IMG/VR virus record: IMGVR_UViG_3300024255_000072
Coordinates: 1-36,856 of that record
Length of the DNA stretch: 36,856 nt
Origin: a virus
Strand: one strand, 5' to 3'
The position numbers and the translations under genes were made by a program. Below the pieces are notes generated by a model. The model saw nothing but the letters and a program-made list of their open reading frames with translations. It was not told where the DNA came from and did not search any database. Of the stretch, positions 5,011 to 36,856 are shown piece after piece (position 1 is the stretch's first letter; every line of letters begins with the position of its first letter).

Positions 5011-5013
5011 AGT

Positions 5014-17752: not shown

Positions 17753-17771
17753 ATTCGTTAATATCCCCTAT

Positions 17772-17793: not shown

Positions 17794-17810
17794 TTTGCGT
17801 GTTTCTCTAT

Positions 17811-20066
17811 TTACGGAGACTCTCCGTTTGGTCCTGTAGCTGTTACTTGCCATTCATTTACGCCCAAAACTTCAACTACTTTAAAAAATCTTTTTACCCT
17901 TGTTGACGTTGCAGTTGGTGTTGCACCGTCATCTGCTTTTAATACTACATCGCCATCTGACGACCCTGTAAAACCAATGTTAGTTACTACTTGTTGATTC
18001 GGTGAACCACCACTTGTTGGTGTTACTCCGTAAGGTTCAACTGTATTTAGGTCTGAAAAGTCAACGCCAATATCAGTATAATCAATAGTGTCTTCAACAT
18101 TAATATTAGATACTTCACCTCTTAACTTAGTAGTATGTACTCTTGCATATGTGTTTGCACGTTTTTCTACTGCTGGATGTAAAAAATTAATTATATCAAG
18201 TAACTGTGCATCAACTGAGCCAAAACCTGGTTGCGGCATGTCTGTTATATCTAGTGCAAGTGCTACGGTTGCACTTTCCATTTGTGTATCTACATAATTT
18301 TTATTTGCTGCATCACTTAATGCACCTGTAGTATAATCAGTAGTAGCAACACCTGTAATTTTTACATCAGAACCACCATTCTTAACTGTAATAGTACCAG
18401 AACTATCAAGCACAAGTCCTGAGCTAGTTACAATGCTTGGACTTCCACTAAGTTCATCTATTAACATTGAATTATGCACACGAAGTCTGTCCATAATACC
18501 AACGTCTCTAATGCCTAACGCTGTTTCAATTGCAGTTCCTAATTCATGATATGTTTGACCACTATTTTCTTGAATCATAGTAACATCATTAATCTTATAT
18601 GCTTTACCATCTACAAGATTTACGTTATCATTAAACTCCCAGTTAGTTCCGTATGACTGATCATTAATCCATAAAATTGTTTTATCATTACCTGTCCCGC
18701 CGTCGGCTAGACCTTTTACTCTAATTCCTGCACCGTCTGCTGTAGTATTGTTACGCTGTGATACACTAACAGCATTAACTGCTGTTACGCCGTCATTTTG
18801 GATTAGTACTGTTGTATCAGGTAATGTAAACGCATATCCGCCCGTTATAAACGATCCATTAGTAGGTTCTAATTTAATTGTTAATCTATCTTCTGAAATT
18901 GATTTAAACGTACCTGTTGCGTTTGACGTACCTTGAGTAATTACGGTTCCAACTGCTATTGATAATGCCTGTGCAGGATCAATTGCTGAATTAAGTGTTA
19001 TAATAGTATCAGCATGACCTAATTCAATGTTGAAATCATCTACTGATAGTGTAGTTGATTCGATTACTGTATTACTACCTAAAACAGTAAGATTACCTTT
19101 AATTAATGCATCGCCGTTTACATCAAGAGTAGCTTCAGGCAGTGCGTCAGTATCTAAATTAATTCCAAAACTTTTATTTTGAGGATTAATTACTAATGCA
19201 TCATAGTCTGTATCACCAAATAGTCTAACTCTAAACTGATCGTTTGATTGTGTATTTTGTAAGATTGTACTAGTAGCAGATATAGTCATTCTAAATTCGC
19301 CGGAATTACCAATCGTTAATCCGCCACTATTGTTAATTTGCAAAGTTCCAGTTGTTTTATCGTTTTGGTCGTTCTTTAAAAATTGTCCTGCTGTTTTCTT
19401 AACTCTTAACCCTGTATCTGGATCAATTTCGTCTGTAACTAATGCTTCAGTTGATTCTGATATACCGTAAAATAAGAAGTTATTTCTATCAACAACATTA
19501 ATACCTTGTTTAACTTCGCCAACTATTTGTAATAACGATTGTTCTTCAATTGTAGGAGTATATGTTTCATTACTAATAAATGCAACTAAGGCTTCGCCAA
19601 CATACATTTTTAGAATAGTATGGTCAACAGCTGATTTATCAGTTACTGTATCTACTTGCCAACCTGATAATCCTTGACTATTTTCAAAAACTGGACCAAC
19701 TAATACTAAATCAGTGCCGTCATAAAAGTAAAGTTGATTACTTCCGTTGTTAATCCAGATATCACCAGCTACCATGTCTGGACGTTGACTTGCAACTATA
19801 GCACCATTTGATTTAAAACCTGTACCGTCATAAACTTTTAATCTACCTTCACTTCGATCATACCAAAGTTGTCCTGTAATTGGTGTAGTTGGCGCTCCTG
19901 CAGATGAAAAGTTTTCAAGCAGTTTAATTAAATTTTCATTAAACGCTTCGCCAAAGCCTACATAGTTTCTTCCTATAAGTGTTAAATCACAAGAAGTAGT
20001 ATCTATTTGGCCATCAACTAATTCAGTAAGCAGTGTTCCGTCTGTTTTATTAAGTTTGTAAGCCAT
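17811..20066 (-). CDS. Tail fibre paralogue, 751 residues
   Basis: The middle member of the three-fibre family. The N-terminal anchor module is clear: LIGRNYVGFGEAFNENLIKL, ENFSSAG, GQLWYDRSEGRLKVYDGTGF, GDIWINN and VLVGPVF. After about residue 210 it diverges into beta-strand repeats containing LDVNGDALIKGNLTVLGSNT (the 'given-index fibre' style of T4-like tail proteins). The C-terminal 150 residues (for example PQPGFGSVDAQLLDIINFLH) are unlike either paralogue, and the protein ends abruptly with TGPNGESP. The ATG overlaps the stop of the upstream fibre gene in a TAATG, so translation is coupled. Likely a structural fibre with its own receptor specificity or a connector role. Confidence 0.83.
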   Translation of the reverse strand: MAYKLNKTDGTLLTELVDGQIDTTSCDLTLIGRNYVGFGEAFNENLIKLLENFSSAGAPTTPITGQLWYDRSEGRLKVYDGTGFKSNGAIVASQRPDMVAGDIWINNGSNQLYFYDGTDLVLVGPVFENSQGLSGWQVDTVTDKSAVDHTILKMYVGEALVAFISNETYTPTIEEQSLLQIVGEVKQGINVVDRNNFLFYGISESTEALVTDEIDPDTGLRVKKTAGQFLKNDQNDKTTGTLQINNSGGLTIGNSGEFRMTISATSTILQNTQSNDQFRVRLFGDTDYDALVINPQNKSFGINLDTDALPEATLDVNGDALIKGNLTVLGSNTVIESTTLSVDDFNIELGHADTIITLNSAIDPAQALSIAVGTVITQGTSNATGTFKSISEDRLTIKLEPTNGSFITGGYAFTLPDTTVLIQNDGVTAVNAVSVSQRNNTTADGAGIRVKGLADGGTGNDKTILWINDQSYGTNWEFNDNVNLVDGKAYKINDVTMIQENSGQTYHELGTAIETALGIRDVGIMDRLRVHNSMLIDELSGSPSIVTSSGLVLDSSGTITVKNGGSDVKITGVATTDYTTGALSDAANKNYVDTQMESATVALALDITDMPQPGFGSVDAQLLDIINFLHPAVEKRANTYARVHTTKLRGEVSNINVEDTIDYTDIGVDFSDLNTVEPYGVTPTSGGSPNQQVVTNIGFTGSSDGDVVLKADDGATPTATSTRVKRFFKVVEVLGVNEWQVTATGPNGESP

Positions 20067-22225
20067 TACTCTTGTTCTCCTGCGTAGATTATATAGTTAA
20101 GCGTCAAGAATGGATTTAAAATATCAATTTGTTGCCCAATTGATGTGCCGTCTGCTAGTATGCCACCGGATCCTTCATATAATGCACCGGTACCAGTACC
20201 AGTTAAATCTTCGACGCCAATAGTATGTGTTCTATTTAAATTCTCAACTGCTGCTGTTGGACTTATTGCATAAAATTGAGAACCAGTAGGATCATTTCTA
20301 TCATTTATTAAGTCATGTTCGTGTTCCGGCAAGTGTCTTAGTTCAATAGTAGTTTTGTCTACACCAGCCGAGCCGCCATGCAAGTCAGCAGCACTATCTG
20401 TTGTAACATTAGCTGCGCCAGCTCTGCCCATACTATCGTTACCCAACGGAAATCTACCTCTTAAATCTGGTACAGCAAAAAATTCATCCGGATTATTTGG
20501 CTGTAATCCATCTACAACTGCTTTAGATTTAAAGCTATATTGCACACGTGACCAAAGAGTTGGATAAGATGACTTTAAGTAAGTTGATCCGTCACATATT
20601 AACCAACCATCTCCTAACGGACTATCAATTGTAGGGTCATCTAATATACCAGCATATGGCATAATTGTACCAATTGGTACAATTGCTTTAATTCCGCCTA
20701 ATATTCTGTCTCTTGGCATTTTATAAAGACTGCCACTTTTATTAACTAGAAACTCATCAGTTGCTTCAGAAGCAACCGGAACTCCCGGAGTTCCAACAAC
20801 ACCTGATTGATTACCAATAAAGCCTGGATCAATAGTAGTATTAAATGTTACAGTGCCTTGCTGTCCGTCAAATTCAACATTATTAGCAGCAATATCACCT
20901 GCTACTTGGAATACTGTCGGTGATGAAAGTCTATTTGCTAAGCCTGAACGTCCTGAAACGTTACCTTGTACATCTCCACGTAAACTTCCTACAAATTCAG
21001 TAGCATACATAGCACTAAACACTTTATCAGGCTGTCCGATTGATCTTAAATTATGTGAGTCTGGTAACAAAGCTGCCGAAACCGGATTCACTGATCCAGT
21101 GTCTGGATTAATAAGATTAGCTTTACCAACAATAAGTGGACCGTCTATATCTGCATGGCCGCCTACATATAAATTTTTAGCAATTCCAGCGCCACCGCTA
21201 GTAACAATACTTCCACTACTAACACCGCTGCTGTCTGTAAGACTAGTAACTTTTAATTGTGTATCAGTTTGTATTGTTCCAACGACATCTAATTCTTTTT
21301 GTGGACTAGGATTGTTAATGCCTACTTTTTCGGTACTATCAACTGTTATTACAGTAGTTGTTGTACCTGCATTATTCATTCTTATTTGTAAGTTAGAACC
21401 GCTTATATCGTGCTGTAAGACGCCCGCAGTACCGTCTATTTGCAGTTTTAGTTCATTACTAATACCAACACTAACCCCTGCTACATTCTTAATTTTAAGC
21501 GGTGCATTTGCGATATTTTCTGCATCTTTGCGCATCACATTTGCTGCTGTAATAACAGGTTGTCCTGGAATAAACAAGTTTAATGACTTTTCTGATATTC
21601 CGTTAAATTGTGGTATGCCGTCACCTTCAATATTACTCGATGAAAGATTAATGCCTGGACGTATTCCGTCTATAAAACCATCTATTGCTGCTTTTGGTGT
21701 AAATGCTTCTCCAGATACAACCGCAACTGGTTTTCCTTTTACTTCAACAAATATAACATTATAATCGTTATTATCAATTGCTGTTATTGTGCTAGGCCTA
21801 GTACCTGTTTCTAATCCTTCTGCAAATTCTGGTCCAACTAATACCCAACCCGAACCTGCAAATAAGTATAATTGCTGATTATCTGTATCTACCCAAAGAT
21901 CACCAATAACTGAATTTGCTGCATCTGGTGCTAAATTAGCTTTCTTTAATCCGCCTGCTGCTACCCAAGTTGTTCCGTCCCATAGTTTTAACTGATCTAC
22001 TCCTGGAGTATTGTCATACCATAGTTGGCCTTCTACAGGATTTACTGGTTGTACTGAGTTAGCAAAATTTTCTAATAAGTGCAAAAAGTTTTCTGCAATA
22101 CTAGATCCGTATGCAGTAGTATTTCTACCTGGAATATTTAACGAAGTTTCTTGGTTAATAGTGTTATCCTCAATAACAATACTACCCTTGTTTACAAAAT
22201 CTGAATATCTAATAGTATATGCCAT
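20066..22225 (-). CDS. Tail fibre with phage tail collar domain, 719 residues
   Basis: The first of the three fibre paralogues. Residues 1-130 are the shared anchor module (NTTAYGSSIAENFLHLLENF, GQLWYDN, LKLWDGTTW, GDLWVDT, VLVGPEF). The middle part has LDVVGTIQTDTQLKVTSLTD-like strand repeats. From about 512 to 600 is a phage tail collar domain (PF07484 type): IVPIGTIMPYAG, DGWLICDGSTYLKSSYPTLW and FAVPDLRGRFPLGND. The end, HLPEHEHD, then NPFLTLNYIIYAG, is the classic finish of collar-domain short fibres such as T4 gp12. It starts two bases after the preceding stop and overlaps the next fibre gene by one base. It is a strong candidate for the receptor-binding fibre. Confidence 0.9.
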   Translation of the reverse strand: MAYTIRYSDFVNKGSIVIEDNTINQETSLNIPGRNTTAYGSSIAENFLHLLENFANSVQPVNPVEGQLWYDNTPGVDQLKLWDGTTWVAAGGLKKANLAPDAANSVIGDLWVDTDNQQLYLFAGSGWVLVGPEFAEGLETGTRPSTITAIDNNDYNVIFVEVKGKPVAVVSGEAFTPKAAIDGFIDGIRPGINLSSSNIEGDGIPQFNGISEKSLNLFIPGQPVITAANVMRKDAENIANAPLKIKNVAGVSVGISNELKLQIDGTAGVLQHDISGSNLQIRMNNAGTTTTVITVDSTEKVGINNPSPQKELDVVGTIQTDTQLKVTSLTDSSGVSSGSIVTSGGAGIAKNLYVGGHADIDGPLIVGKANLINPDTGSVNPVSAALLPDSHNLRSIGQPDKVFSAMYATEFVGSLRGDVQGNVSGRSGLANRLSSPTVFQVAGDIAANNVEFDGQQGTVTFNTTIDPGFIGNQSGVVGTPGVPVASEATDEFLVNKSGSLYKMPRDRILGGIKAIVPIGTIMPYAGILDDPTIDSPLGDGWLICDGSTYLKSSYPTLWSRVQYSFKSKAVVDGLQPNNPDEFFAVPDLRGRFPLGNDSMGRAGAANVTTDSAADLHGGSAGVDKTTIELRHLPEHEHDLINDRNDPTGSQFYAISPTAAVENLNRTHTIGVEDLTGTGTGALYEGSGGILADGTSIGQQIDILNPFLTLNYIIYAGEQE

Positions 22226-22227
22226 TG

Positions 22228-22848
22228 TTACGCCTCATTAAATCCAGTTAAACTTTGGACCCTTACAGTATAATCAATTTGTATAAGTCTATTAAGTGAT
22301 TTTTGCACAGGGTGGAAAATAACATGTGTTAGTAATCTACCATCAGTGCCACTTGCTCCAGAACTAATTAATCCTAGCTCGTCAAATACATATAAATTTT
22401 CTGTATTTGTAGCGGTATCAAATGCATCTTGGCCACTTGGTTCACCGTAATCTAACAAACAACTTATAAGTATGTCTGTGTAGTTTGTACCACTTACATG
22501 TCGTGTTTCTATTTTATTTCTTACTGGGTCTGTATTATTACTTGCTTGGTCGTCTACCACTTTAGCAAATGTTTGATTATACAAACTTGCGTTTGTACCA
22601 GTACTGTTTGGCGTTAAGTATGTAATAATACCAGTTGGGTCAACTGATGTACCTCCATTACCAAATGCCATTTTATATATTGGTCCTTGTCCTGCGTTTC
22701 CTAAAGACTCTGCAAGTGCTATACTCATATTTTCATAGTGTATAGCATTACGCTTGTCGATAAGAATTTCTCCACTCTCAGGATCATGGATCTTAATATG
22801 TCCTTGGAGTAGTACTCCGTTTAAATCATTAAATGTATCTGTTGTCAT
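22228..22848 (-). CDS. Virion structural protein, 206 residues
   Basis: The first 50 residues (LNGVLLQGHIKIHDPESGEI, then DKRNAIHYENMSIALAESLG) and the MAFGNGGTSVDPTGIITYLT segment (60-79) resemble small tail-associated proteins found beside fibre genes in marine T4-like phages. The C-terminal half is beta-rich (TDILISCLLDYGEP, LNRLIQIDYTVRVQSL). No signal or membrane segment. It follows a late promoter whose motif overlaps the stop of the giant gene, has an AGGAAG ribosome site, and is followed within two bases by the fibre genes. I infer a baseplate or fibre-attachment component. Confidence 0.78.
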   Translation of the reverse strand: MTTDTFNDLNGVLLQGHIKIHDPESGEILIDKRNAIHYENMSIALAESLGNAGQGPIYKMAFGNGGTSVDPTGIITYLTPNSTGTNASLYNQTFAKVVDDQASNNTDPVRNKIETRHVSGTNYTDILISCLLDYGEPSGQDAFDTATNTENLYVFDELGLISSGASGTDGRLLTHVIFHPVQKSLNRLIQIDYTVRVQSLTGFNEA

Positions 22849-22865: not shown

Positions 22866-22875
22866 GTATTTATTC
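22866..22875 (-). promoter_or_regulatory. Candidate T4-like late promoter overlapping a stop codon
   Basis: On the - strand the sequence reads GAATAAATAC; its TAA (complement of 22870-22872) is the stop codon of the giant gene. It lies about 18 bases upstream of the ATG at 22848 and could start transcription of the 206-residue protein and the fibre genes separately from the giant gene. Confidence 0.55.
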
Positions 22876-25800
22876 GGGTAAGCCAGTTGTTGCTCCGCGG
22901 ATGAATTGCGCTATTGGATTCTGCGAATACCTCAACTGCTCTCCTGGACTTTGCCATGTTTTTCCTAATTTTCTTACTATTAATATTCTACTATTTGCTT
23001 CTGGTGTATCTACAAGGCTTACTGTAGCAACATTGTTGTCTATAGTAAGGGTAAATTCTGCATCTAAAACAATATCGCCACCTGGACTATTTTGATCAAT
23101 TAGACCAGTTACCAAGTTGCCATCTGCATCAGTTTCTTGGAACTGATATGCTGTAATTGCATTTTTACGCAATCTTCTGCCACCTACAAATATTTCTAAT
23201 TCGTTTACACCATTAGTTGGCATCCAGTCTAGTAATATTTGCGTTGACTCGTCATCAAGTGCGATAGTTGAAACCATTTGATCTTTATAAGGAATAGTTT
23301 CTTTATCGCTTTGATCCATACACTCAGTCCCTGCTTCGTATATTGTACGAGCACCAGTACCCAATGTACTTCTACGTAATTGCGAAAGTACATTACCGTC
23401 TACTTGGAAATATTCAATTCTTTCGCCTTCTACAAAAAGCACACCCGGATTGTTTTTAGCAACATCAGGAATAGTAATATCTGATGCATCTGCTAATACA
23501 ATTTCTTTATCAGTTACATTTAAGTCTTGTAACAATGTATAAACATTATCTTTATTTAATCGTTTGTAGTGAGTTCTATTTAACATATCTTTAAACATTC
23601 TAAATCCAAACTTCTCATTTGATTTAGGTGCTGCAAAATGTATTACTTGAACTATATCGTTTGCTACTAATGGTCTAGTTATTTGTATATAGCTATCTAA
23701 TTTAACTAGCTTGTAATCACGATTTGGTGTTAATAATATACCATTTAGCACTACCCAAACATATGCAGTATCTAACGCCGGTGATCTTAATTTAATTAAT
23801 CCTTTACCACGCCTATGTGCTTCGTAATAATCATTATCGCCAACAGTTAGTACACTTCTAGATACTGTAGTTTTTGTTTCCATTTGTATATCTTGTATTT
23901 CATGTCTAGAAAATGTAAACACATCAATAGTTGCATCTTGTGCTGGAATACTTTCTAGTACAATCGAGTCGCCAGCTTCAATTAGGTCTACATCTTGTAT
24001 TCTAGTTGAAATTGCATTACTAGTTTGACCTTCAACTGGTATTGTGTCGTCAGCGTCAGCTAGTTGTTCTAACCCAGGAAGTGTTCCTATAATAGTTAAG
24101 ACATTCGAACTATAAGATTTTACAGTTGCAGTAAATTGCGTACTGTCAGGATATCCTATTGTTACTTGTTCGCCTTCAGTAAATGTACCGGTAACTTGTG
24201 TTATTACTAATCTAGTATTTTTAGCAAAACTATATTCAGCAGTTGAAGGAATAACTATTTCTAAATCGTCACCTGTTTCACCTACGTTATCAAATAATAC
24301 AACTTGACTATTACCAAAATCCCAGTTATAATCTATTAAGAATTTTAATTTTCTGCCGTTTATATAAACATCTACTTGATCTGGTGCAAGTGTACTTCCT
24401 GGATACTGCGCACGATCTAATGGATATTCTCTAGTTGATGAAATATACCATTGCTGTGTGTATCCTGGATATAAAATAGTATCGTCTACCTTAACAATAA
24501 CATTGTGACTTAACGGTAATCTTGTTGAAGGTTCAGGTGATAAATTAAATCCAACTGTACTTCCGTCACCTATATATCTATTTACAGTTGCTTCACTATA
24601 TCTTTGTACTGTTGACTCATTAGTATCATATAATGCATAATATATGAATGCATTTTCTTCTGGTGAAGTTACAAACTCTAGTCCAACTAATCCTTGAAGA
24701 TCGCCATAAGTGCTGTCTGTTTCAAAAATAGCTACTTGAGACTTTAATCCGTTTACTGTTATATACGATTGTAATCCTTCTCTGTACACAGATTTTGTAA
24801 CAAATATACGAGTAGTTCCGTCACCTGTAAAGTTGTCTATATCAAGTATTCTTTCTCCATTTCCAGCCATTGACGAAATATTAACTATATCGCCTGCACT
24901 TAATGGAGTATTTAATGTTATAGATTTATTAAAGTAATCAATTTCGTACTGAGTTTCAGTTAACAGTGTTCCGTTAATTTTTACAAACAACGAATAAATG
25001 TTATGTGGTAGAATACTTAGATCAAACTCTGTTTGTGAATCTGTAGATGTATAATTTCGTGTACTAATTAAACTGCCGCCGTCTGCAACTCTGTCATACA
25101 CTTTTAAGTCCAATGTGTCATGCAGCTGACCTGGAACTAATTCTTCTGGACCTTTTGATGTTGTTGGTGTAACAAATCCGTCGCCATCAAGGTTTATACT
25201 ACCTGCATCAAGTCCTGTTGCAGTGCCGTATTGTAAATTTCCGCCTTCAAGTAAAGTATCAAATCCTGATCCACTTGGTAGGAAACTACCGTCACTTGTT
25301 GATTTTCTAATAGTAACTGTTGGATTAATTGATGTTCCTGCTACTGCTGGGGTTCCGTCTACTACTATATCAACTACATATCCTGATGCTCCTGCTAAAC
25401 TTGGATCGTCTTGTGCTGGTGTATTACCGTCACCAAATATACTATTAATAGTTGCCAACGAAGGCTTACTAATAACCGGAGCAATGTATGTATTAAAGAA
25501 CGCATAACTTATTGGAAGTGTTGCTTGGATTTGTGCTGGTGTACGTACATCATCTGCCCATTCAGGATCAAGACTGTTGCCGTCCCATAGCCCAGTATAA
25601 TCAAACATAGCAAAGTTTAACAAATACATATATTCTTTTGCTGCTACTTCAAATGCATCTGCATCTGTTTTCCAAGCATTTAAAGGAGTTTGATAACCTA
25701 TTGGTTCCCACTTGCCTGCGTCAAATGCTTCTTCCATTGCTGCATACAAAGGACCAGTTGCCCAATCTGCACTAATGTATGAATACAGTTTTATATCGTC

Positions 25801-28800
25801 TGTTAGACCGTGCATATGTAGTGTGTGGAATACGTGTTCAATAACTTCTTGTGCGTCAATCTCACCATCGCCGTAGCCATCGCCGGTTGAGTTTAAGTAC
25901 CAAACCATATCATTAGCAACGTGTGAATCAAACAATGGAGTTAAGTTCCAACTAATAACACCTGCGTCAGTTAGGAAGTTTGGAGTATACTCTGCTCCTG
26001 AGCCTCTTGCTACTCGTTGTAGTGTTGGTAATCCTTCGTGCCAAGTTCCTGCATCACCACTTAATGTTTTAATTAAGTTTCTTTGGAATGCTTCGTTAAT
26101 ACCTGCGCCATTTGGATCTAAGAATAATTCAAACATACGTGCTACTTTTTCTAGCCACGCATCTGGAACTGCTGTTTGTCCGCCTACTGTGCCGGCGCCC
26201 ATAATTCTTACACCGTTAGTTGTAACTTCACGTTTGAAGAAATCACTACCATCGCCTGTAACATTACTAATTGCTCCGTTGTTGTATTCTGCATCTGCCG
26301 GTAACCCAGCAACTTCTGGTGTTCCTCCTGATTGGAAATAATCTTCCCATTCGTCAACATTTTCAATGTTAATTTTGTAAACAGGTAACCCGCTTGCATC
26401 TGTAGTTACTTCGTATTCGTCGCTCTCAGTACTAAGTGATTTCATTATTGCATTTGGATTACCAAGAGCAAGTACCGTTGAACCATCATCTGCTAGATAA
26501 GTTTTTGTACTACCGTCATAATTTATATCGTCAACTCTTGTAGCATTTAGATATACGTTATAAGTTGTATCTACTTCTAAAGGTTTAGATAATGTAAACG
26601 ATGTTTGTATGCCAGTAGTAGTAAAACTTTCATCATCAAAGTTTTCATCATAGTTATCCCATTCAGTAGTGTACCAAGGACGACTATCGTAACCTAAATC
26701 TTGACCAAATTCAAACGAACGTACTTCTACGCCACCGTAATCAACTCCGTCCATTAACTGTCCTAAGTCTTTACCGTACTGTCCTGTTTCAGGATTATAT
26801 AATAAATTAATTCTGTCAGCAGCTGAAAGAAGCTCGTAACTCTTATTATATGTTACTGCAATAGTAGTGCCAGCAACACGAGACCTTTCAAGAGTTATGT
26901 AACCATATTCACTTGTATGCGTTTCTCCAGAAGCCTTTATACTTTCATTATTATATGAATATTCACTGTCAAGTGCTTCAACACCATCAATGACTACACT
27001 TACATTTGCCTTAGTTAAGTCTAGCGGCCACTTCAATTGGATTTTTAATTCAGTACCAGTGCTTATAAATGTTTCGGTTTCTTTTAGATTTAGAGTTTCA
27101 AAATTAGGAGTAATTCTGTCAAACTTTTGTTTAACATTAATTGTTCTAATTTTCTTATTACCTAAAACAATACTAACTCTTGGTTGTGTTCCGTCTTCTG
27201 ATTGTGTTCCTTCAATGTTAACAGTAGGAATACTAGTATACCCACTTCCTTGATTATTTACTAGGATACTTTTTACTTGTCCACTACCTATAAATGCCGT
27301 AGCAGTTGCACCGGTGCCACCACCGCCTGAAATTATTACTGACGGAACTTCAGTATAGCCGCTTCCGCCGCTTTCAATTAATATTTCAGTAACACTATAT
27401 GTAAAATTATCAATCCAATTCTTTTGCGGGAATTCATTTACATCAAAATTAATATCTGATAATACTCCATCATTGATTGTAACTTTTGGTGAAATAATCT
27501 CACCACGTTGCGGATCATAAAATGGTGACAAATCAAAATCTGTTACAACACTTTGAGTATTATCTAATTTATCGTATGCTGATAGATATTCTCTAATTTT
27601 AGTTTTATAAGGTTTAACTTCTTCAACATATGCTTCGAAACTAGGTAAATTATCATTTTGGAATGTAGTTTTTTCTTTTAGTTCGCCAACATTATGTTTT
27701 GCTTTTATAAAACTTGTTTTAAATACCCAATCAGCATAATTTTGTTCTGATAATACGTAACGCAAACTTGCAAATAATAATTGATTATATTCATTTGCTA
27801 ATTCATCTATGAATAATTCATCTCTAATTGTTTCTAATATTTTACGTAATTCAATTGAACAGTCGTTATCAGTATCATAAAGTTTATTTACAATTTCAAT
27901 AGTTCCGTTTTGTCTACCTATAGTTTTATAACCTGTAGTATAATCCGGTGTATCAATGTTTACTATTTTTTCTAATAATATCCAGCCGCCGCTACCGACA
28001 TCACTAACTTTAGATATATCACCGATATTATCATCAATAATATTTAATTGGTAAAAATCATCAATTAAGAAATCAATTGCAGTAAGAGAACTAAATCCAT
28101 CAGCATACCAGTCTACATAATTCCAATAATCTTGTACATTGTATGATTGCTGACTTGATATTGACCAAGTTCTAGTATTATCGTCCCAAGCATAAATTGA
28201 CCATGCTCCGCCTATTGTACTATCAGCACGTACTAGCGTACTAAGTGGTCTAACAGAAAGTGTTAAATCATCTTTATAATAAGTACCGCCGTTAATTACA
28301 TCAACACTTGTAATAATGCCAAGTGTATTGATATTAGCACGTAATTCTAATCCACTTCCGGTACCAGTAGATATAATTTTTGGTGGTATTTTATATCCAC
28401 GTCCTGGATTTATTAAATTTACACCTGTTACTGTGCCATCAACTAATACTGGTTCTAGTATTGCTTGTGTTGCTCTAACTGTACCAACTAAACGTAATTC
28501 TTCATCAATGTCTATTGCACTATCATATAGTCCAGATAACGTTGACGGTAAAGGCTCTGAATCAGTTAATTTTGTAAGATTAAGATTATCAACAGCAAGT
28601 TCATTTATAAGAACTCTATTCACTCTTTCAATAAATTGTTTTAATGCTTCCTGTCTATTAATAAACCAACTTTGTCTAGGTCTGTTTTGATTACCATACT
28701 TTTGCTTTACACTCAAACTGGAGTCAGGAACTTCTCTACCATATTTGTCTGCTCCAATTAAACTATCAAACCATTTTTCTTCAATTACATCTTTAGGTCG

Positions 28801-31800
28801 ACTTGTTTCTAACCCATCAGTAATAATTTGATACTCAGTATGAATATTGTTATCTTGATTTCCGATAGTCCAATAACGGAAATTAATTGCAACATCTTTG
28901 TCATTAGTTAATTTATTTGAATTATGTACTACAAATCTATCATTGCCAAGAATAGTTACAAACTTTATTTGTTGTCCTGCAGGATCTTGTATTATATTAG
29001 AAATATCAAATGCTGTTCTATTTCTTCCTTCAATGTTTGGTACTACTCTAGTATCTTTGACCCAGAAGTAATAACGTTTACTAAAGCTCTGAGAAATATT
29101 ATCGTATACATCTTTTTCTACATATCGTGTATCGCTATATTTTGTTTGCCCGCTGTAACCATCAGCTACGCCTTGATTAGTATTAGCTCTTAGATCCCAT
29201 TGTGACGGAATTACTCTTGACTCGACCCATTCGTAAATGTCAACACTTGCACCTTGTGCAAGATTGCCCCAAATATTATTTGAATATGTAATATCACCTT
29301 GATGATAATCAACAAATTTTACTGTGCTTAAATCCCACCATAGTTTACCAACATTTTTACTATTCCAAGAAGTTAGTGCTTCTTTACTTGAACTGTTGCC
29401 AACATTATAGTTTGCAGGGTCAAAATAAGTCTTGTAAGATAATTCTTGCTCTGCAATGCCTGCAATTTTTCCTAGCACAGGATCAATTATATCTAAACGA
29501 GAAAGCATTTTATTTTTACTAGTATCGTATATAAATGACCCTCTCATTTTAGTAATATCTACAGGTGTAACTGGACTTCTATGTACTGCCCACACTCTTG
29601 CTTCGCTATCTTTTATATAAACAGCAACCTTGCCGCCATCTAGTGCCGGAAGTCCTACTAATATTGTGTTATCTTGAACAATAGCGTTTTTACCAAAGTC
29701 TTTAACATTAAAATTATTATACTTTAATCTTTGACCAAATACTAATGTATCATTTATATTCTCATATAGATATACAATCCCACTGTCTTGAACAGAACTT
29801 ACATGAGTTGTAAATCCGTTATCAAATGTAGTTTGTCCTACTGATAGTTCACGTTGCGGATCATTAACATACTTGCTATTAAATGTAGCTTCCGAATTAG
29901 TGTCTCTATTTAAATACCTATCAAATGTAGTTTCTAAAATAATATCACTTGTACTACCTGTAACAATTAATTGATCGCCATCAAAATCTAATCTTGCCCC
30001 AAACTCTTCAGCAAGTTCTTTATTTGGACTTTCTAATACTTGATGTAAATTAAATGTTCCGCTTGTATTTTTGTAAACATATACTTTACCTTGTAGTAAA
30101 TTTTCTCCAGTTGTACTAGGAGCACTAACTGCAACAAGGTTACCATTATTTGAAACTGAAACTTTTGTTCCAAATCCTAAACTATCTTGAGGGGCTGCAA
30201 ATTCTGTTAGATATTCAAAGTGATTATCTTTTAAGGCGTAAATTATAAGTTTATTACCAGTTGAGTATTCAGCTATAGTGGCTAATGTGTTGCCACGTTT
30301 ACTAATATCAAATGTTTTTCCAAATGTACTTGTATTCAAATTAACAATGCTGGAATCTTCGCCTGGGAAAACATAACCAGATGTGTTAGGCAAGTACCCT
30401 ACAAAGTCAATATGATCACTTAACAATCTCCATTTTGTATTATCAAATTCTTCATCACCTAGGTTAGTAAGAGCTTTGTAGAATACATCGTTATATATAA
30501 CAATTTGACCTTCATAATAAGAATCGTTATTACTATAAACTCCTTTAAAGTTTTGATTTTTTCCTAACTGCCAATTATACTCACCAAATTCGTTTGATCC
30601 ATGTATAACAAAATAAACTCGTCCACTGCCGCCGATAGCGTCAGTATCATTAATATGATTTTCTTCACTGTTTAATACTAGTCTGTAGAAATTATCGTTA
30701 TTAATTAACTTAACATCAGCTGCAAGTTTTCTATTATTTTCTCTGTTAGGAAGGATATATCCGTTGACTAAATCATAATTATCTGTTTCAGTATTATAAG
30801 AATATACAAAGAATGCACCTTCGTTTATAAAGGAACTTGCATCTCTACCAACATTAATAGGAATATTATTAACTTCTTGCCAATCATTATTTTCAGTACT
30901 TGGTACTAACGGATTTCTTGGTAAGCCGGGTTTAAACTCTTCAATCCAAGTTTGATATTCTATACCTGAAATAAATTTAGTTTCATAATCTGCAATTTCA
31001 TCTGTTTGACTACTAATTGCATATGTAAGTTTTGGTGGAATAACAAAATTCTCTGCATGTTGGAATACTGCTAGTTTACCAATATCTTCATCAGCTAGTT
31101 GTCTAGACTCTGTTGAACCTATGAGTGTTTGCTGTATACCAACTTCTTTGTACAAGAACATTGCTTCTGTAACTGTTCCGCTGTAACGTTCGCCAAATGT
31201 AAATATTCCTGCAACATCTTTAACATATATTCTACATTTGTTTAAGTCTCTTTGGTAATACATAACTGTTGCAGTAGCACCAGTTTTTCCTTCACGTACA
31301 GTATCACCTACTTGAAAATCAATAAGACTATTATGAGTAAAGTCAATGTATCCGTCCCACAAATCATACGGTGTTTCAACTGTATTAATAATACTATAAG
31401 GATCATTACCAAACCCAGTATCACTTATATCAGGTAAGTTTCCAGATGCATCTCTAATGTCATTTAAGAATACTCCAACTTTAGTAGTTGGGTTGGACGC
31501 TACTTTATCTGAAACATTTTTAGGCATTCTAACAACCCATCGAGGATCTAAAACATCAACTTCTGTTGCGTCTCCAGCAATACCTTGGCTTTTATGACTT
31601 AAAACTCTAATTAGATCAACTTCTTTTTGGAAGGGTTGATCAATTGCGCCTAAAACTTGTATTGGATTATCTAATGCGTTTTGTGTACTAGAATTATAAG
31701 GAAGTCTTGCAGTACTTTCTGTCCAAGTAGCATTAGGGTTAGTAAATGTATTAGGATTGTAACTGTTTTTAACATCTGATATAACTAAACCGTATGCATT

Positions 31801-34800
31801 ATCAGATGTAGTGTTTCCAGGAATATAAGAGTTATCTGTTGCAATTTCCCAGAAGCCGCCTAATACGTTACTTCTATCAATTTCATCATGTAACGGACGA
31901 TTGTATGTGCCAATTAAGAACTGATCATTAATATAAAGCTCTCCGTTTTCTTCAAATACTCCATTTTTGTCATTAGCATAAATTACTAATCTGCCTAATT
32001 CTTTTCTAGTATATATAACTGTTGCATTACCAGTAGGTGTAGTAATTCGTGCTCCTGTTTCAATTAACGTAGAAATATCAGTCGGTACTGTGTTTGCACC
32101 TAAGTCAGTCCATTCAAGTGCTGTTTGACTTGTTTTGTTAATTAAATTGCCATCAGTTTTAAATATGCCAGATACATTAATTACTTCTATTACATTATTA
32201 TTAATTTTATTTACAGTACCAATTACAGTATTATTATCTTGACCAATTAAATCGCCAACACTAATATTTGCTGTAGGAATTACATCTGTAGTTGTAAGTG
32301 TTACCGGAATATTTGGCGTATTTACTGGATCTATAATATAAAATACGTCTTCAACCTTACGTCTAATAGTATGTACTGTTTCAGTTAAAAATGATTTAGT
32401 TATTTCAGACTGAGCATTATTAAAAGGAGAATTAACTCTACGAATAACACCTTGTATTGTGCCGTCACCTAGATTAAAGTTGCTCGGATCTGCTCCAATG
32501 GGCTCTCCGCTAAATCCAATTGTACCGTTTAACTTGACTGTTAAACCCGGATCTCTATATAATTCAACTTGTTGATCTAGTAGTTTTTTAACATAGTATG
32601 TAGTACCTTCTAGACCCTTAACACCCTCTTGTCTTATAGTATCAAAAGGAACATTAATATCACTGTTGTCAAAAGTATCTGATCTAAAAGTTAAGTTATC
32701 ATTAGTAAAATCTGTTAATATTATTGCGTCACCGTCTTGTAAACCGTGATCAGTACGTGTTGTAAGTGTTACAGGTTTAATTATTCCATCTTCTTCAATT
32801 TGCATTCCAAGACCAACAATGTCAATACCTGGTTCATTAATATATGCGTTGGATAAATCATTCCAGTTAAAATAAACTCTATCGCCTACGTTGCTTCCTT
32901 CAAACGCATCTGCTGATGCTCGAACAAGCATATGATCTGTTGTTACATCTTTTAACGGATAGTCACCTGTAGTAATTATAGGAAAATCTAAATAATTATT
33001 ATACGTTTTATATAATTCCGAACGCCATCTGCTAACACTATCAAATGTACCAAATACAACATTATCAGTTCTTCCAAAAACACGTCTACGTGATTTATAT
33101 AGTCCGCCGTTATATTGTACAATGGAACCTAATTTATAATCACTTGTAAAATTAAAGTTATCTTTGAATGCACTTTTTACATAAGTTGCTTCTGGTGCTC
33201 CAACAACAATGTGTTTTCCGTCTGGACTCATTGCAACACTATCACCATAGCGACTTGATCCGTTATCAAAATTTGTAATAGGTTCTAATGTTTGATGCGG
33301 CTGTAAAGTACCAAACACTGTACTTCCGTCTTGCTCTCTTTTGTAAACGTGTACTTTACCTTGTCCGTCTGTTGGAGATCCAACAGCAACAAACGTATTA
33401 TCAGCATCAGTTGCAATACTATCGCCAAATGCATCAGCAGTATTGTTAGGGTTGATTATATCTTCATCAAAATTATATGCATTTGATGCTTTTAGTACAT
33501 TCCATGTATTTTTATCATCAACACTGTCAACCCATATTAATTCGTCGTTACTAATATCTGTTTCAGCATACTTGTTTGCATCTTCAAGTTTTCCTACACG
33601 GTTTGATATTAGTGTCGAAACTATACCAGCTAAATTAGTTTCTTCCTCAGTAAGTACACTTTCACCTAAATTAATAGTAACTCTATTTAAATTTACATTT
33701 ACTACTTCATAAAATCCGTCAATGTCTACTACATTTTTAAGTCCAATATAACTACCTACATCAAAATTAGATATTCTGTCTAAAATAATTTCTGCTTGAT
33801 TTGATTCTAATGGAACTGCGCCAGTAGCAGTAAATACTGTATCAACATGTTTGTACACATTCCATTCTTGACCTTCAAAGGTTACCCAAATATAGTCTCC
33901 TTCGGTTACAGTTTCGATATCTAAATTAAGTATATCTTCTTTATTTCTTACTACGTATCTTACATCAGTTTCTCTAACATATCCAGCAGTCTTAATTGGT
34001 GTTTCAGACAAATATGTTGTTGGAAAGGGAGTATGTGTATATTCGTTTGGTTTTACATATACGTCACTTGTTCGTTGACGATAAATTAAATCAGTTTCGT
34101 CACCAGTAATTGTATCTGTTAGTAATACAGGCTGAGGACTTAGATTCATGTTTTCTTCGTCTAAAATAAATTCAATTTCATCAAATCCGTCAGCAGCTCC
34201 GTACTGTCCTGCACGTATTGCCCATTCTTCGTAAAATTCTAAACTTTCTTTATCTGCTGCTCCTAATGCATCAAATAATTTAGTTAACGCATTTCGAGTA
34301 CCTTTATCTTGTATCATACCTTGATAAAATTTATACTGCGATACGTCATCATTAATAATATTTGCTAGATAATCTCTTTTTTGGTAACCAATTAAATGTT
34401 GTGCTACTTCTTGTTGACCTACATCAAAATTATCAGTATCTAAATCGTAAAAGTCTGCAAACTGATTTGTTTTATATTCTAAGTTTGTTAATAACCTTGG
34501 CGTAGGTTTTTCTGCTAACCTGTACCAATTTGTTGCTATAAAATCTTTTGTTCCGCCTATTTTAGTAGTAGCAGTATAATAAAATTCTTTAAACTTAACT
34601 ACGTCTCCAATAGCATAATCTTTATACGGTGTCCATTCTGTTGTTACTGCTTGGTCGTAAACAAATCCTGGAATATTTAAACCACCTGTCCAGTCAGCAG
34701 TTCTATATCCTAGTACACGAATACGTTCTTGTCTATATCCTGCTTCAGGATCATAAATTACATCTTTAAATTCAGTTACATTATCTAATAGTACAACATG

Positions 34801-36856
34801 TTCTTTCTGAACTAATGGCAGTTTTAATGAATATATTCCATCGGCTGTATTTTTTAAAGATAATACAAAAGTATTATCATCTTGCCTAAATATATTACAA
34901 AATTCTTGTTTTAATTTAGTTCCGTCAGCTTTAACTAGCCCATAATCATAAAAAGTATCAAATACATTATCAACTACTAAACTATCTCTTTTAAATTGTA
35001 TTTTTCCTGCCGACGGACTTACTGTTATTAATGCTCCGCTATCCCAGTTCTGTAATGTCCAGAACATAAATTCTTTTGAACTTAGTTTCCAGTTTTCAAC
35101 AGTTTCAAGTTCGTTATTAAAACTATCAAATACAAATCCAAGATCTTTTAAGTGTTCGCCGTAACCTATTAAAAAATCAACAACTTCTTGTGTGGTTTTT
35201 AATAGTGTACCGTATGGTAATTCTTGTGGAAAAACTTTATCAAACTGTGTTCTAAATATTGCACTACGACCGCCAACTTGTGGTAAACTTGCTAATTTAA
35301 CAAATTTGCCAGTATCAAATATCTGTGTACTAGTGTGCCCTGTTGTTGTTTTATAAAACTGTCCGTTGTTTCTAACTACTGAACCTTCAATATAACGTTG
35401 ATTAGAATCCCATTCAACATAGCTATCACTAACTCCTCCAACATTAACTGTAGGATCTTTTTCGTTTGGTTGGAAATTGTAATATGTAAATGAAGGTCTT
35501 GTTGAATCATAACCTCTTAGTATATACCCACTAGAGGCTTTTTCAATAACAACTCCGCTATATGTAACTAGCTCTACAGGACTACTTGTTTGAAGTATTA
35601 CTTCATAATTTTCATCTGGAACGAAAACATTGCCTTGACTTAGCGGTGTTCGTGAATCTAAGATTAAATTAAATTTACTCTTGTCAGTAAATCCGCCAAT
35701 CTTAAATGCCATTTGATTAGTAATACTTTTGACATTATTTTGATATTCTTCATAATTTACAAGAATATTACTTGCAAGATAATTAGCAATAAAATTAACA
35801 AATCCTGATGTATAAGTTCTTGTTCTAGTTTCTAATGTAGAATTATTTGGAAAGACTAAATCTTGTAATCTAATGCGTTTACCTGTTTCCGAATAAACAA
35901 TTTGATCAGCACTATTTCTTTGTACACGTAATCTATCAAATCCTAATCCAATAATTTTTGCAGGCTGTAATAATATCCATGCTTTAAATAACGAAAATGC
36001 ATATTCTGAACTTCTGCGCCAAGCTGTTTCAACTGGTGCTTCGTCACCGAATACAAATGTACTTCGTGTTAGCCTATTAACATAATTTTGTGCATATCCG
36101 CTATCTAACGGACTTAGTAAATTACCTTGTTCGTCAACTGGAATATAAGTTGTAAGATTTGGACGTTTATACTTGTCAATTATTTGTTTTACAACATTAG
36201 GTTGTGCTACAATTCCTTTTTCTAAATCTTGCCACATTAATAAATTGTTACTAGTATAAGGAGCCGGTCCGTACTGTGTTTCCCACCAAGTAGGCTTAAT
36301 ACTAAAGCCTAACATTTCCCAAGGATGTGTATGTGGACGATCGGTATCAAATGCTTGTTTGTATATTGCTCTCCAATAACCTGGCAATTGTTGACCTGTT
36401 GGTGAAACCATACTACTGTAGTTGTATGTAAATTTATTCTCTCTTTCGTAAAAGCTAAAATCAGTGTAATCAACATCACCAACTACACTCAACCAAGACG
36501 CAAAGTCTTTAAGCATGACTGTATCTATTTGGTCTTTAGAAATTGATGTATTTCTATTTGCTCCGGGCACAAAATCATTTATGTCAATTACATTTTCGTC
36601 ATAGGATACTTTTAGATTATTGTAAATTCTCTTTTCAAATTCTAATAATAAATCATCTCGGTAATCACCATATGCTCTTGTTATAGATCCGTCATGCCCT
36701 TGTATAACTTCTGTAGGTTCTATGTAAGAATTGTCAATGAACTTTTGAGGAATAAATTTTGGATACATTCCTAATTTTGTAGGAGTAGGTGGTACAAACG
36801 AACCATCTGTAGTCTCGTACTCATATATAGTTATTTGGTCGTCTTCAGTTAACGGT
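22870..36856 (-). CDS. Giant modular tail/baseplate adhesin-like structural protein, 5'-truncated by the window
   Basis: The frame is open without a stop for at least 4,661 codons and continues past the right edge: the 29 codons before the first visible ATG (36768) also read as protein (for example DDQITIYEYETTDGSFVPPT) and there is no ribosome site before that ATG. Modules, numbered from that Met: a W- and P-rich region (HPWEMLGFSIKPTWWE, about 143-158); carbohydrate-binding-like modules near 450-495, 707-754, 1202-1253 and 2072-2119; FG-GAP-type beta-propeller blades near 1110-1195 and 2145-2390; small beta modules (1500-1870); glycine-rich GSGYTSIPTVNI repeats (2777-2840, 3133-3185); an EF-hand-like/His-rich domain (3535-3763); and a string of VKINGTLL-type beta modules to the end. 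It is probably a tail fibre or baseplate protein for surface-glycan recognition. Function is inferred from its modules and its place next to the fibre genes. Confidence 0.85.
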   Translation of the reverse strand, partial: PLTEDDQITIYEYETTDGSFVPPTPTKLGMYPKFIPQKFIDNSYIEPTEVIQGHDGSITRAYGDYRDDLLLEFEKRIYNNLKVSYDENVIDINDFVPGANRNTSISKDQIDTVMLKDFASWLSVVGDVDYTDFSFYERENKFTYNYSSMVSPTGQQLPGYWRAIYKQAFDTDRPHTHPWEMLGFSIKPTWWETQYGPAPYTSNNLLMWQDLEKGIVAQPNVVKQIIDKYKRPNLTTYIPVDEQGNLLSPLDSGYAQNYVNRLTRSTFVFGDEAPVETAWRRSSEYAFSLFKAWILLQPAKIIGLGFDRLRVQRNSADQIVYSETGKRIRLQDLVFPNNSTLETRTRTYTSGFVNFIANYLASNILVNYEEYQNNVKSITNQMAFKIGGFTDKSKFNLILDSRTPLSQGNVFVPDENYEVILQTSSPVELVTYSGVVIEKASSGYILRGYDSTRPSFTYYNFQPNEKDPTVNVGGVSDSYVEWDSNQRYIEGSVVRNNGQFYKTTTGHTSTQIFDTGKFVKLASLPQVGGRSAIFRTQFDKVFPQELPYGTLLKTTQEVVDFLIGYGEHLKDLGFVFDSFNNELETVENWKLSSKEFMFWTLQNWDSGALITVSPSAGKIQFKRDSLVVDNVFDTFYDYGLVKADGTKLKQEFCNIFRQDDNTFVLSLKNTADGIYSLKLPLVQKEHVVLLDNVTEFKDVIYDPEAGYRQERIRVLGYRTADWTGGLNIPGFVYDQAVTTEWTPYKDYAIGDVVKFKEFYYTATTKIGGTKDFIATNWYRLAEKPTPRLLTNLEYKTNQFADFYDLDTDNFDVGQQEVAQHLIGYQKRDYLANIINDDVSQYKFYQGMIQDKGTRNALTKLFDALGAADKESLEFYEEWAIRAGQYGAADGFDEIEFILDEENMNLSPQPVLLTDTITGDETDLIYRQRTSDVYVKPNEYTHTPFPTTYLSETPIKTAGYVRETDVRYVVRNKEDILNLDIETVTEGDYIWVTFEGQEWNVYKHVDTVFTATGAVPLESNQAEIILDRISNFDVGSYIGLKNVVDIDGFYEVVNVNLNRVTINLGESVLTEEETNLAGIVSTLISNRVGKLEDANKYAETDISNDELIWVDSVDDKNTWNVLKASNAYNFDEDIINPNNTADAFGDSIATDADNTFVAVGSPTDGQGKVHVYKREQDGSTVFGTLQPHQTLEPITNFDNGSSRYGDSVAMSPDGKHIVVGAPEATYVKSAFKDNFNFTSDYKLGSIVQYNGGLYKSRRRVFGRTDNVVFGTFDSVSRWRSELYKTYNNYLDFPIITTGDYPLKDVTTDHMLVRASADAFEGSNVGDRVYFNWNDLSNAYINEPGIDIVGLGMQIEEDGIIKPVTLTTRTDHGLQDGDAIILTDFTNDNLTFRSDTFDNSDINVPFDTIRQEGVKGLEGTTYYVKKLLDQQVELYRDPGLTVKLNGTIGFSGEPIGADPSNFNLGDGTIQGVIRRVNSPFNNAQSEITKSFLTETVHTIRRKVEDVFYIIDPVNTPNIPVTLTTTDVIPTANISVGDLIGQDNNTVIGTVNKINNNVIEVINVSGIFKTDGNLINKTSQTALEWTDLGANTVPTDISTLIETGARITTPTGNATVIYTRKELGRLVIYANDKNGVFEENGELYINDQFLIGTYNRPLHDEIDRSNVLGGFWEIATDNSYIPGNTTSDNAYGLVISDVKNSYNPNTFTNPNATWTESTARLPYNSSTQNALDNPIQVLGAIDQPFQKEVDLIRVLSHKSQGIAGDATEVDVLDPRWVVRMPKNVSDKVASNPTTKVGVFLNDIRDASGNLPDISDTGFGNDPYSIINTVETPYDLWDGYIDFTHNSLIDFQVGDTVREGKTGATATVMYYQRDLNKCRIYVKDVAGIFTFGERYSGTVTEAMFLYKEVGIQQTLIGSTESRQLADEDIGKLAVFQHAENFVIPPKLTYAISSQTDEIADYETKFISGIEYQTWIEEFKPGLPRNPLVPSTENNDWQEVNNIPINVGRDASSFINEGAFFVYSYNTETDNYDLVNGYILPNRENNRKLAADVKLINNDNFYRLVLNSEENHINDTDAIGGSGRVYFVIHGSNEFGEYNWQLGKNQNFKGVYSNNDSYYEGQIVIYNDVFYKALTNLGDEEFDNTKWRLLSDHIDFVGYLPNTSGYVFPGEDSSIVNLNTSTFGKTFDISKRGNTLATIAEYSTGNKLIIYALKDNHFEYLTEFAAPQDSLGFGTKVSVSNNGNLVAVSAPSTTGENLLQGKVYVYKNTSGTFNLHQVLESPNKELAEEFGARLDFDGDQLIVTGSTSDIILETTFDRYLNRDTNSEATFNSKYVNDPQRELSVGQTTFDNGFTTHVSSVQDSGIVYLYENINDTLVFGQRLKYNNFNVKDFGKNAIVQDNTILVGLPALDGGKVAVYIKDSEARVWAVHRSPVTPVDITKMRGSFIYDTSKNKMLSRLDIIDPVLGKIAGIAEQELSYKTYFDPANYNVGNSSSKEALTSWNSKNVGKLWWDLSTVKFVDYHQGDITYSNNIWGNLAQGASVDIYEWVESRVIPSQWDLRANTNQGVADGYSGQTKYSDTRYVEKDVYDNISQSFSKRYYFWVKDTRVVPNIEGRNRTAFDISNIIQDPAGQQIKFVTILGNDRFVVHNSNKLTNDKDVAINFRYWTIGNQDNNIHTEYQIITDGLETSRPKDVIEEKWFDSLIGADKYGREVPDSSLSVKQKYGNQNRPRQSWFINRQEALKQFIERVNRVLINELAVDNLNLTKLTDSEPLPSTLSGLYDSAIDIDEELRLVGTVRATQAILEPVLVDGTVTGVNLINPGRGYKIPPKIISTGTGSGLELRANINTLGIITSVDVINGGTYYKDDLTLSVRPLSTLVRADSTIGGAWSIYAWDDNTRTWSISSQQSYNVQDYWNYVDWYADGFSSLTAIDFLIDDFYQLNIIDDNIGDISKVSDVGSGGWILLEKIVNIDTPDYTTGYKTIGRQNGTIEIVNKLYDTDNDCSIELRKILETIRDELFIDELANEYNQLLFASLRYVLSEQNYADWVFKTSFIKAKHNVGELKEKTTFQNDNLPSFEAYVEEVKPYKTKIREYLSAYDKLDNTQSVVTDFDLSPFYDPQRGEIISPKVTINDGVLSDINFDVNEFPQKNWIDNFTYSVTEILIESGGSGYTEVPSVIISGGGGTGATATAFIGSGQVKSILVNNQGSGYTSIPTVNIEGTQSEDGTQPRVSIVLGNKKIRTINVKQKFDRITPNFETLNLKETETFISTGTELKIQLKWPLDLTKANVSVVIDGVEALDSEYSYNNESIKASGETHTSEYGYITLERSRVAGTTIAVTYNKSYELLSAADRINLLYNPETGQYGKDLGQLMDGVDYGGVEVRSFEFGQDLGYDSRPWYTTEWDNYDENFDDESFTTTGIQTSFTLSKPLEVDTTYNVYLNATRVDDINYDGSTKTYLADDGSTVLALGNPNAIMKSLSTESDEYEVTTDASGLPVYKINIENVDEWEDYFQSGGTPEVAGLPADAEYNNGAISNVTGDGSDFFKREVTTNGVRIMGAGTVGGQTAVPDAWLEKVARMFELFLDPNGAGINEAFQRNLIKTLSGDAGTWHEGLPTLQRVARGSGAEYTPNFLTDAGVISWNLTPLFDSHVANDMVWYLNSTGDGYGDGEIDAQEVIEHVFHTLHMHGLTDDIKLYSYISADWATGPLYAAMEEAFDAGKWEPIGYQTPLNAWKTDADAFEVAAKEYMYLLNFAMFDYTGLWDGNSLDPEWADDVRTPAQIQATLPISYAFFNTYIAPVISKPSLATINSIFGDGNTPAQDDPSLAGASGYVVDIVVDGTPAVAGTSINPTVTIRKSTSDGSFLPSGSGFDTLLEGGNLQYGTATGLDAGSINLDGDGFVTPTTSKGPEELVPGQLHDTLDLKVYDRVADGGSLISTRNYTSTDSQTEFDLSILPHNIYSLFVKINGTLLTETQYEIDYFNKSITLNTPLSAGDIVNISSMAGNGERILDIDNFTGDGTTRIFVTKSVYREGLQSYITVNGLKSQVAIFETDSTYGDLQGLVGLEFVTSPEENAFIYYALYDTNESTVQRYSEATVNRYIGDGSTVGFNLSPEPSTRLPLSHNVIVKVDDTILYPGYTQQWYISSTREYPLDRAQYPGSTLAPDQVDVYINGRKLKFLIDYNWDFGNSQVVLFDNVGETGDDLEIVIPSTAEYSFAKNTRLVITQVTGTFTEGEQVTIGYPDSTQFTATVKSYSSNVLTIIGTLPGLEQLADADDTIPVEGQTSNAISTRIQDVDLIEAGDSIVLESIPAQDATIDVFTFSRHEIQDIQMETKTTVSRSVLTVGDNDYYEAHRRGKGLIKLRSPALDTAYVWVVLNGILLTPNRDYKLVKLDSYIQITRPLVANDIVQVIHFAAPKSNEKFGFRMFKDMLNRTHYKRLNKDNVYTLLQDLNVTDKEIVLADASDITIPDVAKNNPGVLFVEGERIEYFQVDGNVLSQLRRSTLGTGARTIYEAGTECMDQSDKETIPYKDQMVSTIALDDESTQILLDWMPTNGVNELEIFVGGRRLRKNAITAYQFQETDADGNLVTGLIDQNSPGGDIVLDAEFTLTIDNNVATVSLVDTPEANSRILIVRKLGKTWQSPGEQLRYSQNPIAQFIRGATTGLPE

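What the first reader, a model, noticed from the sequence alone, without database searches (positions are those of the whole stretch)
22870..36856. Phage structural gene of more than 4,660 codons that runs off the window
A single - strand frame covers 38% of the window with no stop and is still open at the right edge, so its true start is outside. T4's own long fibre proteins are about 1,000-1,300 residues. The modular make-up (carbohydrate-binding-like, propeller, EF-hand-like and beta-sandwich modules) suggests a very long adhesin or a baseplate 'arm' that may define a distinct kind of host-recognition machine.
Basis: partly seen in the sequence, partly recalled or inferred. Interest (0 to 1): 0.7.

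Follow-up and report, generated by a model that had tools for sequence, protein, structure and literature searches.

The report
Giant phage baseplate protein, swappable module
The long open frame is a real, 5,609-residue tail-baseplate protein of a known family found in very large phages; its unusual feature is a 310-residue enzyme-like block, found as a plug-in in about 18 different phage gene contexts and in surface proteins of marine bacteria.

Summary
The frame at 22870-36855 (-) has 4,661 codons with no stop and is open at the right edge. A second contig of the same population (2 mismatches in 23,984 bases) carries the start: the protein is 5,609 aa, about 629 kDa, and the window lacks its first 948 residues. 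Complete relatives of about 4,900-5,400 aa sit in dozens of marine contigs, so the frame is not an artefact.

It is not a new kind of machine. It belongs to PHROG 10938 (E 4e-234), the giant virion proteins of jumbo phages such as PA5oct, RaK2 and Atu_ph07. It lies directly after a gp6-type baseplate-wedge gene, the slot of T4 gene 7. Detectable homology to T4 gp7 or to VrlC was not found.

The surprise is the 'EF-hand-like' part, 25338-26301: a ~310-aa mobile module. Close relatives lack it. It is 92% DNA-identical to a module in a giant that is otherwise about 34% identical, and 83% identical to one in an unrelated cyanophage baseplate gene. It occurs in at least 18 gene contexts, usually once per phage, and in Actinomarinales lipoproteins. 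Its model resembles zincin metallopeptidases, but the metal motif is EHxxH, not HExxH. Activity is unproven.

The parts
22870..36856 (-). Giant virion protein gene, 3' 4,661 codons of 5,609; the 5' end (948 codons) lies outside the window
34000..36855 (-). Conserved N-terminal region (window residues 1-952), shared with jumbo phages at about 25-30% identity; includes CBM_5_12 (chitin-binding-like) at 35329-35415
   Evidence: the AlphaFold model of this part is weak (mean pLDDT 58), only the chitin-binding-like domain has solved look-alikes
29806..33858 (-). Hypervariable middle (window residues about 1000-2350) with FG-GAP propeller repeats and length differences between relatives
26431..29532 (-). 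Second conserved region (window residues about 2442-3475), partly shared with jumbo phages
25338..26301 (-). Mobile ~310-aa module inserted in a loop of the giant; block of 92.2% DNA identity with L090 (giant otherwise about 34% identical in protein) and about 82.5% with S-RIM2 SWRG_00078
25846..25881 (-). EF-hand-like acidic loop DGYGDGEIDAQE leading into the E/H-rich helix
25825..25839 (-). EHVFH motif (EHxxH) on the predicted active-site helix; the distant bacterial homologues keep it as EHLLH
25630..25638 (-). KEY (invariant Glu) on the second long helix, candidate third metal ligand (inference)
22873..25308 (-). C-terminal part of the giant, starting with the strand IRKSTSDGSFLP that closes the insertion site
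22228..22848 (-). Conserved 206-aa gene directly downstream (PHROG 11259, unknown function)
20066..22225 (-). Tail-fibre-like protein, 719 aa, with a Collar domain
17811..20066 (-). Virion structural / fibre-like protein, 751 aa
15143..17752 (-). Tail-fibre-like protein, 869 aa

Best explanation
The frame codes for a giant baseplate-wedge-slot protein of a marine relative of the jumbo/T4-type contractile-tailed phages. It follows the gp6-type wedge gene and precedes three fibre-like genes, so it most likely forms part of the six wedges and carries peripheral domains (shown: family and gene order; inferred: exact place in the virion). Into one exposed loop of it, this phage population has received a ~310-residue module that phages exchange widely between unrelated virion genes (shown). 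The module most likely folds like a zinc-peptidase (zincin). I think it acts on or grips a protein on the cell surface during adsorption, as its bacterial relatives are surface lipoproteins. That last step, and any catalysis, are inferred.
For: Family: PHROG 10938 E 4e-234; profile alignment to five jumbo-phage giants at 100% probability over 2,498 columns. Gene order: upstream ORF in L011 matches PHROG 10646 (E 1e-297) and PHROG 219, both baseplate wedge; a gp5-like hub/lysozyme gene lies before it in L010. Virion: PA5oct gp355 is marked ESI-MS/MS; phAPEC6 gp245 (381.88 kDa, next to wedge gp244) gave 17 peptides (PMC7247149). Mobility: nearest relatives L010, L012, L026 have 73-79 residues across the site where the window's protein has 406; module and host gene disagree (L090 giant about 34%, module 92%; L092 giant 68%, module 84%); 18 upstream and 20 downstream flank clusters; the module tree needs 28-32 context changes against 18 at least, and the giant context alone needs 5 or more forced by well-supported branches; in L128 it sits at a different site of a homologous giant; S-RIM2's copy lies in a PHROG 708 baseplate wedge protein about 330 aa longer than that profile. 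Fold: AlphaFold pLDDT 83.5, pTM 0.86; most of the structural matches of Z 4-7 are clan MA zincins, led by Zmp1/PPEP (Z 7.0). Host-side relatives: lipobox-bearing lipoproteins in Actinomarinales-type genomes, in L168 at a chromosomal locus.
Against: Foldseek gives the module no confident PDB or BFVD match, and a Z of 7 is within what unmatched models often reach. The canonical HExxH is absent. T4 gp7 homology was not detected. No virion data exist for this phage itself.
Confidence: 0.6

Rival explanations
1. The module is only a binding domain: a catalytically dead zincin-like or unrelated fold that recognises a surface ligand, and is shuffled like other receptor-binding domains of tail fibres.
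For: EHxxH instead of HExxH; fibre-like and baseplate contexts; module swapping between fibres is ordinary in phages (general knowledge).
Against: Conservation is unusually high for a receptor-binding tip (mean column identity 74%, over 90 invariant columns, many of them E, H, D, K, W), which fits an active or metal site better than a diversifying binding surface.
Confidence: 0.3
2. The module is a maturation protease that cuts its own carrier or a neighbouring virion protein during assembly.
For: It sits in an exposed loop of large virion proteins; one copy per genome in 19 of the 20 records with a match, G019 having a further partial match.
Against: The bacterial relatives are surface lipoproteins without any virion; carriers are too varied to share an obvious cleavage site.
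Confidence: 0.08
3. One reading: the giant is a very long adhesin or arm that forms a distinct host-recognition machine.
For: CBM and propeller domains and a hypervariable middle.
Against: Conserved family with a fixed slot after the gp6-type gene in cultured jumbo phages.
Confidence: 0.07
4. Artefact: a chimeric assembly or missed frameshift made the long frame or the inserted module.
For: A few contigs have split frames.
Against: Another contig agrees with 2 mismatches in 23,984 bases; intact frames in dozens of contigs; the module occurs inside intact genes of cultured phages.
Confidence: 0.02

Closest known systems
PHROG 10938 giant virion proteins of jumbo phages (PA5oct gp355, RaK2 ORF070, Atu_ph07 gp180, SCTP-2 140)
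   Same: Homologous over most of the conserved parts; same place directly after the gp6-type baseplate wedge gene
   Different: The window's protein is longer (5,609 vs 3,326-4,449 aa) and carries the mobile module and extra propeller/insert regions
T4 gp7 (baseplate wedge)
   Same: Same slot after gene 6
   Different: Five times longer; no sequence homology detected
S-RIM2 SWRG_00076 ('similar to gp7', 6,378 aa) and SWRG_00078 (PHROG 708 baseplate wedge)
   Same: Giant protein in the same slot; SWRG_00078 carries the same mobile module at 82.5% DNA identity
   Different: SWRG_00076 shares only short repeat motifs with the giant; SWRG_00078 is an unrelated carrier
VrlC (Pelagibacter phage HTVC008M gp57)
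   Same: Large marine T4-type baseplate protein said to stand in for gp7 (PMC7029224)
   Different: No profile similarity; different gene position (after a later wedge gene)
Zmp1/PPEP Pro-Pro endopeptidases and the M34 (ATLF) fold, clan MA zincins
   Same: Model shows a similar strand-helix order with an E/H-rich helix and a second helix with an invariant Glu; best Z 7.0
   Different: No sequence match; EHxxH instead of HExxH; an EF-hand-like loop precedes the helix; found as a mobile virion module

Membership tests
PHROG 10938 jumbo-phage giant virion protein | Sequence homology to the family profile | tested here: met
   E 4e-234; 100% probability against five members
PHROG 10938 jumbo-phage giant virion protein | Gene directly after a gp6-type baseplate wedge gene | tested here: met
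   In L011, same population, and related contigs; annotated jumbo phages
PHROG 10938 jumbo-phage giant virion protein | Component of the virion | not testable with these tools
   Only homologues: PA5oct gp355; phAPEC6 gp245, orthology inferred from size and position (PMC7247149)
T4 gp7 | Slot after gene 6 in the baseplate operon | tested here: met
T4 gp7 | Detectable sequence homology | tested here: not met
   hhalign probability 0.4%; not filed as gp7
VrlC | Detectable sequence homology | tested here: not met
   hhalign probability 0.4% against HTVC008M gp57
Zincin (clan MA) metallopeptidase, PPEP/M34-like | Zincin fold | tested here: inconclusive
   Model pLDDT 83.5; best Z 7.0, most listed rows zincins, but under Z 8 and no confident Foldseek match
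Zincin (clan MA) metallopeptidase, PPEP/M34-like | HExxH metal-binding motif | tested here: not met
   EHxxH invariant in 52 modules and in distant homologues; not filed as a zincin peptidase
Zincin (clan MA) metallopeptidase, PPEP/M34-like | Metal-dependent peptide cleavage | not testable with these tools
   needs protein

The most novel reading that the evidence does not exclude
Marine contractile-tailed phages share a freely exchanged, virion-borne protease-like module with an unusual metal motif, related to surface lipoproteins of Actinomarinales-type bacteria. It is plugged into whatever exposed virion loop is available and normally carried once per phage, as a portable tool for opening or cleaving a protein on the surface of abundant marine bacteria.
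Probability: 0.25. Interest if true: 0.75.

Novelty: new variant of a known kind. Interest (0 to 1): 0.5.

Why it matters
The giant protein extends a known baseplate family to above 600 kDa in abundant uncultured marine phages. More important, the mobile module has no family in Pfam, NCBIfam or PHROGs and no relative among PDB sequences, yet it crosses between phages whose carriers are unrelated and is shared with chromosomal lipoprotein genes. If it is a peptidase, it would be a portable virion enzyme against surface proteins in the sea. Cultured carriers (S-RIM2, Syn33, S-B43) make that directly testable.

Tried and rejected
T4 gp7 homology: not found by profile-profile alignment. VrlC homology: not found. 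PDB sequence search of the conserved core: only weak chitin-binding hits. Structure model of the core (934 aa): low confidence, only the CBM-like domain is interpretable. Module in BFVD, Pfam, NCBIfam, PHROGs, plasmids: nothing. Profile of the module against PDB sequences: nothing. Module in 396 genomes drawn across its phylum: only the starting genome; within its order 8 of 42 genomes. Paper searches found no description of the module in the open-access library held here; most subscription journals are not held.

Full report
1. The observation. The - strand frame 22870-36855 is real: 4,661 codons, no stop, open at the right edge. In 100 random sequences of the same dinucleotide make-up the longest open frame was 202 codons, and the base composition by codon position is that of a coding sequence. 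The window's record ends at 36856, so the start had to be sought elsewhere. Contig L011 overlaps the window over 23,984 bases with two mismatches and extends it; there the frame begins at an ATG right after a 1,200-codon gene and codes for 5,609 aa, 629 kDa. The window therefore lacks 948 N-terminal residues. 45 complete frames of 4,922-5,609 aa (some from near-identical contigs) occur among the best 78 loci; 462 stretches of the viral collection matched.

2. What the giant is. PHROG 10938 matches with E 4e-234 from profile position 755 onwards, consistent with the missing N-terminus. The annotated relatives are giants of jumbo phages: PA5oct gp355 (3,857 aa), Atu_ph07 gp180 (4,449), RaK2 ORF070 (3,326), SCTP-2 140 (3,807), Vibrio phage 2.275.O (3,771). 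Profile-profile alignment of 29 marine giants with five of these gives 100% probability over 2,498 columns. In PA5oct, RaK2 and Atu_ph07 the gene follows one annotated as baseplate wedge subunit. In L011 the gene before it matches PHROG 10646 (baseplate wedge, E 1e-297) and PHROG 219, and in L010 the earlier gene is a gp5-like hub/lysozyme. This is the slot of T4 gene 7. T4 gp7 itself, however, gives no detectable match, nor does VrlC of HTVC008M, which has been reported to replace gp7 in pelagi- and cyanomyophages (PMC7029224). I therefore place the protein by family and gene order, not as a gp7. Virion membership rests on homologues: PA5oct gp355 is marked ESI-MS/MS in its record, and phAPEC6 gp245 (381.88 kDa, next to wedge gp244) gave 17 peptides (PMC7247149); the orthology of the latter is inferred from size and position.

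3. Anatomy. Conservation along the protein shows a conserved first third, a variable middle with length differences, a second conserved region, the insertion site, and a moderately conserved C-terminus. Pfam finds a chitin-binding-like CBM_5_12 and FG-GAP propeller repeats. A structure model of 934 conserved residues was poor (pLDDT 58), and only the CBM-like domain had solved counterparts, among them proteins of the Agrobacterium phages Milano and 7-7-1.

4. The module. A megablast of the whole gene hit 85 cyanophage records; in the rows listed the match covers only about 930 bases. The matched place in S-RIM2 is in a different gene, SWRG_00078, which is a PHROG 708 baseplate wedge protein about 330 aa longer than that profile. 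The matching block in the window is 25338-26301. Relatives close to the window's giant (L010, L012, L026) have 73-79 residues across this site where the window's protein has 406; the flanking strands continue on both sides. The module is therefore a loop insertion.

5. It moves. L090's giant is about 34% identical to the window's, yet its module is 92.2% identical in DNA with sharp edges; L092's giant is 68% identical but its module only 84%. In L128 the module lies at another site of a homologous giant, after residue 1199. Among about 80 module-bearing frames there are 18 upstream and 20 downstream flank families. On the module tree the contexts need 28-32 changes where 18 is the minimum, and well-supported branches alone force five for the giant context. 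Contexts were clustered by BLAST and the sample is the best 80 of 207 places, so these numbers are estimates. Of 20 records with a match, 19 carry one copy, including contigs of 253 and 268 kb; one (G019) has a further partial match. No plasmid in the collection carries it.

6. What the module may be. It has no Pfam, NCBIfam, PHROG or PDB sequence match of note. The AlphaFold model is good (pLDDT 83.5, pTM 0.86). Foldseek has no confident hit, and the BFVD library none. A second alignment of Foldseek's candidates puts zincin metallopeptidases at nearly all top places: Zmp1/PPEP at Z 7.0 (rmsd 4.5, 162 aligned), PPEP-2, the lethal-factor fold, collagenases, aminopeptidases. Z 7 alone is not proof; the uniformity of the list and the E/H-rich helix add weight. 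The helix carries the invariant EHxxH rather than HExxH, an EF-hand-like loop precedes it, and a second helix carries an invariant Glu. Distant bacterial homologues keep EVIEHxxHT and that Glu (read by eye). I rate zincin-like fold at about 0.65 and peptidase activity at about 0.35.

7. Relatives in bacteria. Four Actinomarinales/Acidimicrobiia genomes carry it; in the three complete copies it is the C-terminal domain of a lipoprotein with a lipobox-like signal, judged by eye. In L168 the neighbours are chromosomal genes such as FabF-, FabI- and PPDK-like ones (named from sequence by eye). Matches occur in 8 of 42 genomes of that order, two of them to the distant form and two cut or partial. 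The direction of transfer is not shown.

8. Verdict. The long frame is a new, very long member of a known virion protein family. The mobile module makes it a new variant worth following. The open-access library held no description of the module, but most subscription journals are not held.

Noticed in passing
window 15143-22225 (-): The three fibre-like genes downstream (719, 751, 869 aa) share an N-terminal domain of about 300 residues at about 30% identity, so they look like tandem paralogues on one anchor type.
   Followed up: partly
window 4321-5907 (+): GTP cyclohydrolase and QueE-like genes side by side suggest 7-deazaguanine synthesis, perhaps DNA base modification.
   Followed up: no
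window 1860-3635 (+): Cysteine-dioxygenase-like, phosphoribosyltransferase-like and 2OG-Fe(II) oxygenase genes.
   Followed up: no
window residues 3152-3241 of the giant: GSGY-type repeats match PHROG 460, annotated 'head closure Hc2', which also matches an S-RIM2 baseplate protein; HTVC008M gp55, in the gp7 slot, bears the same name, so the label looks wrong for these proteins.
   Followed up: partly
L168:1807-5709: A 1,300-aa lipoprotein-like gene with a HEYEH motif lies directly before the module-bearing lipoprotein in an Actinomarinales-type genome.
   Followed up: no
L029, L041, L079: The giant frame is split in a few relatives; sequencing error or true splitting.
   Followed up: no
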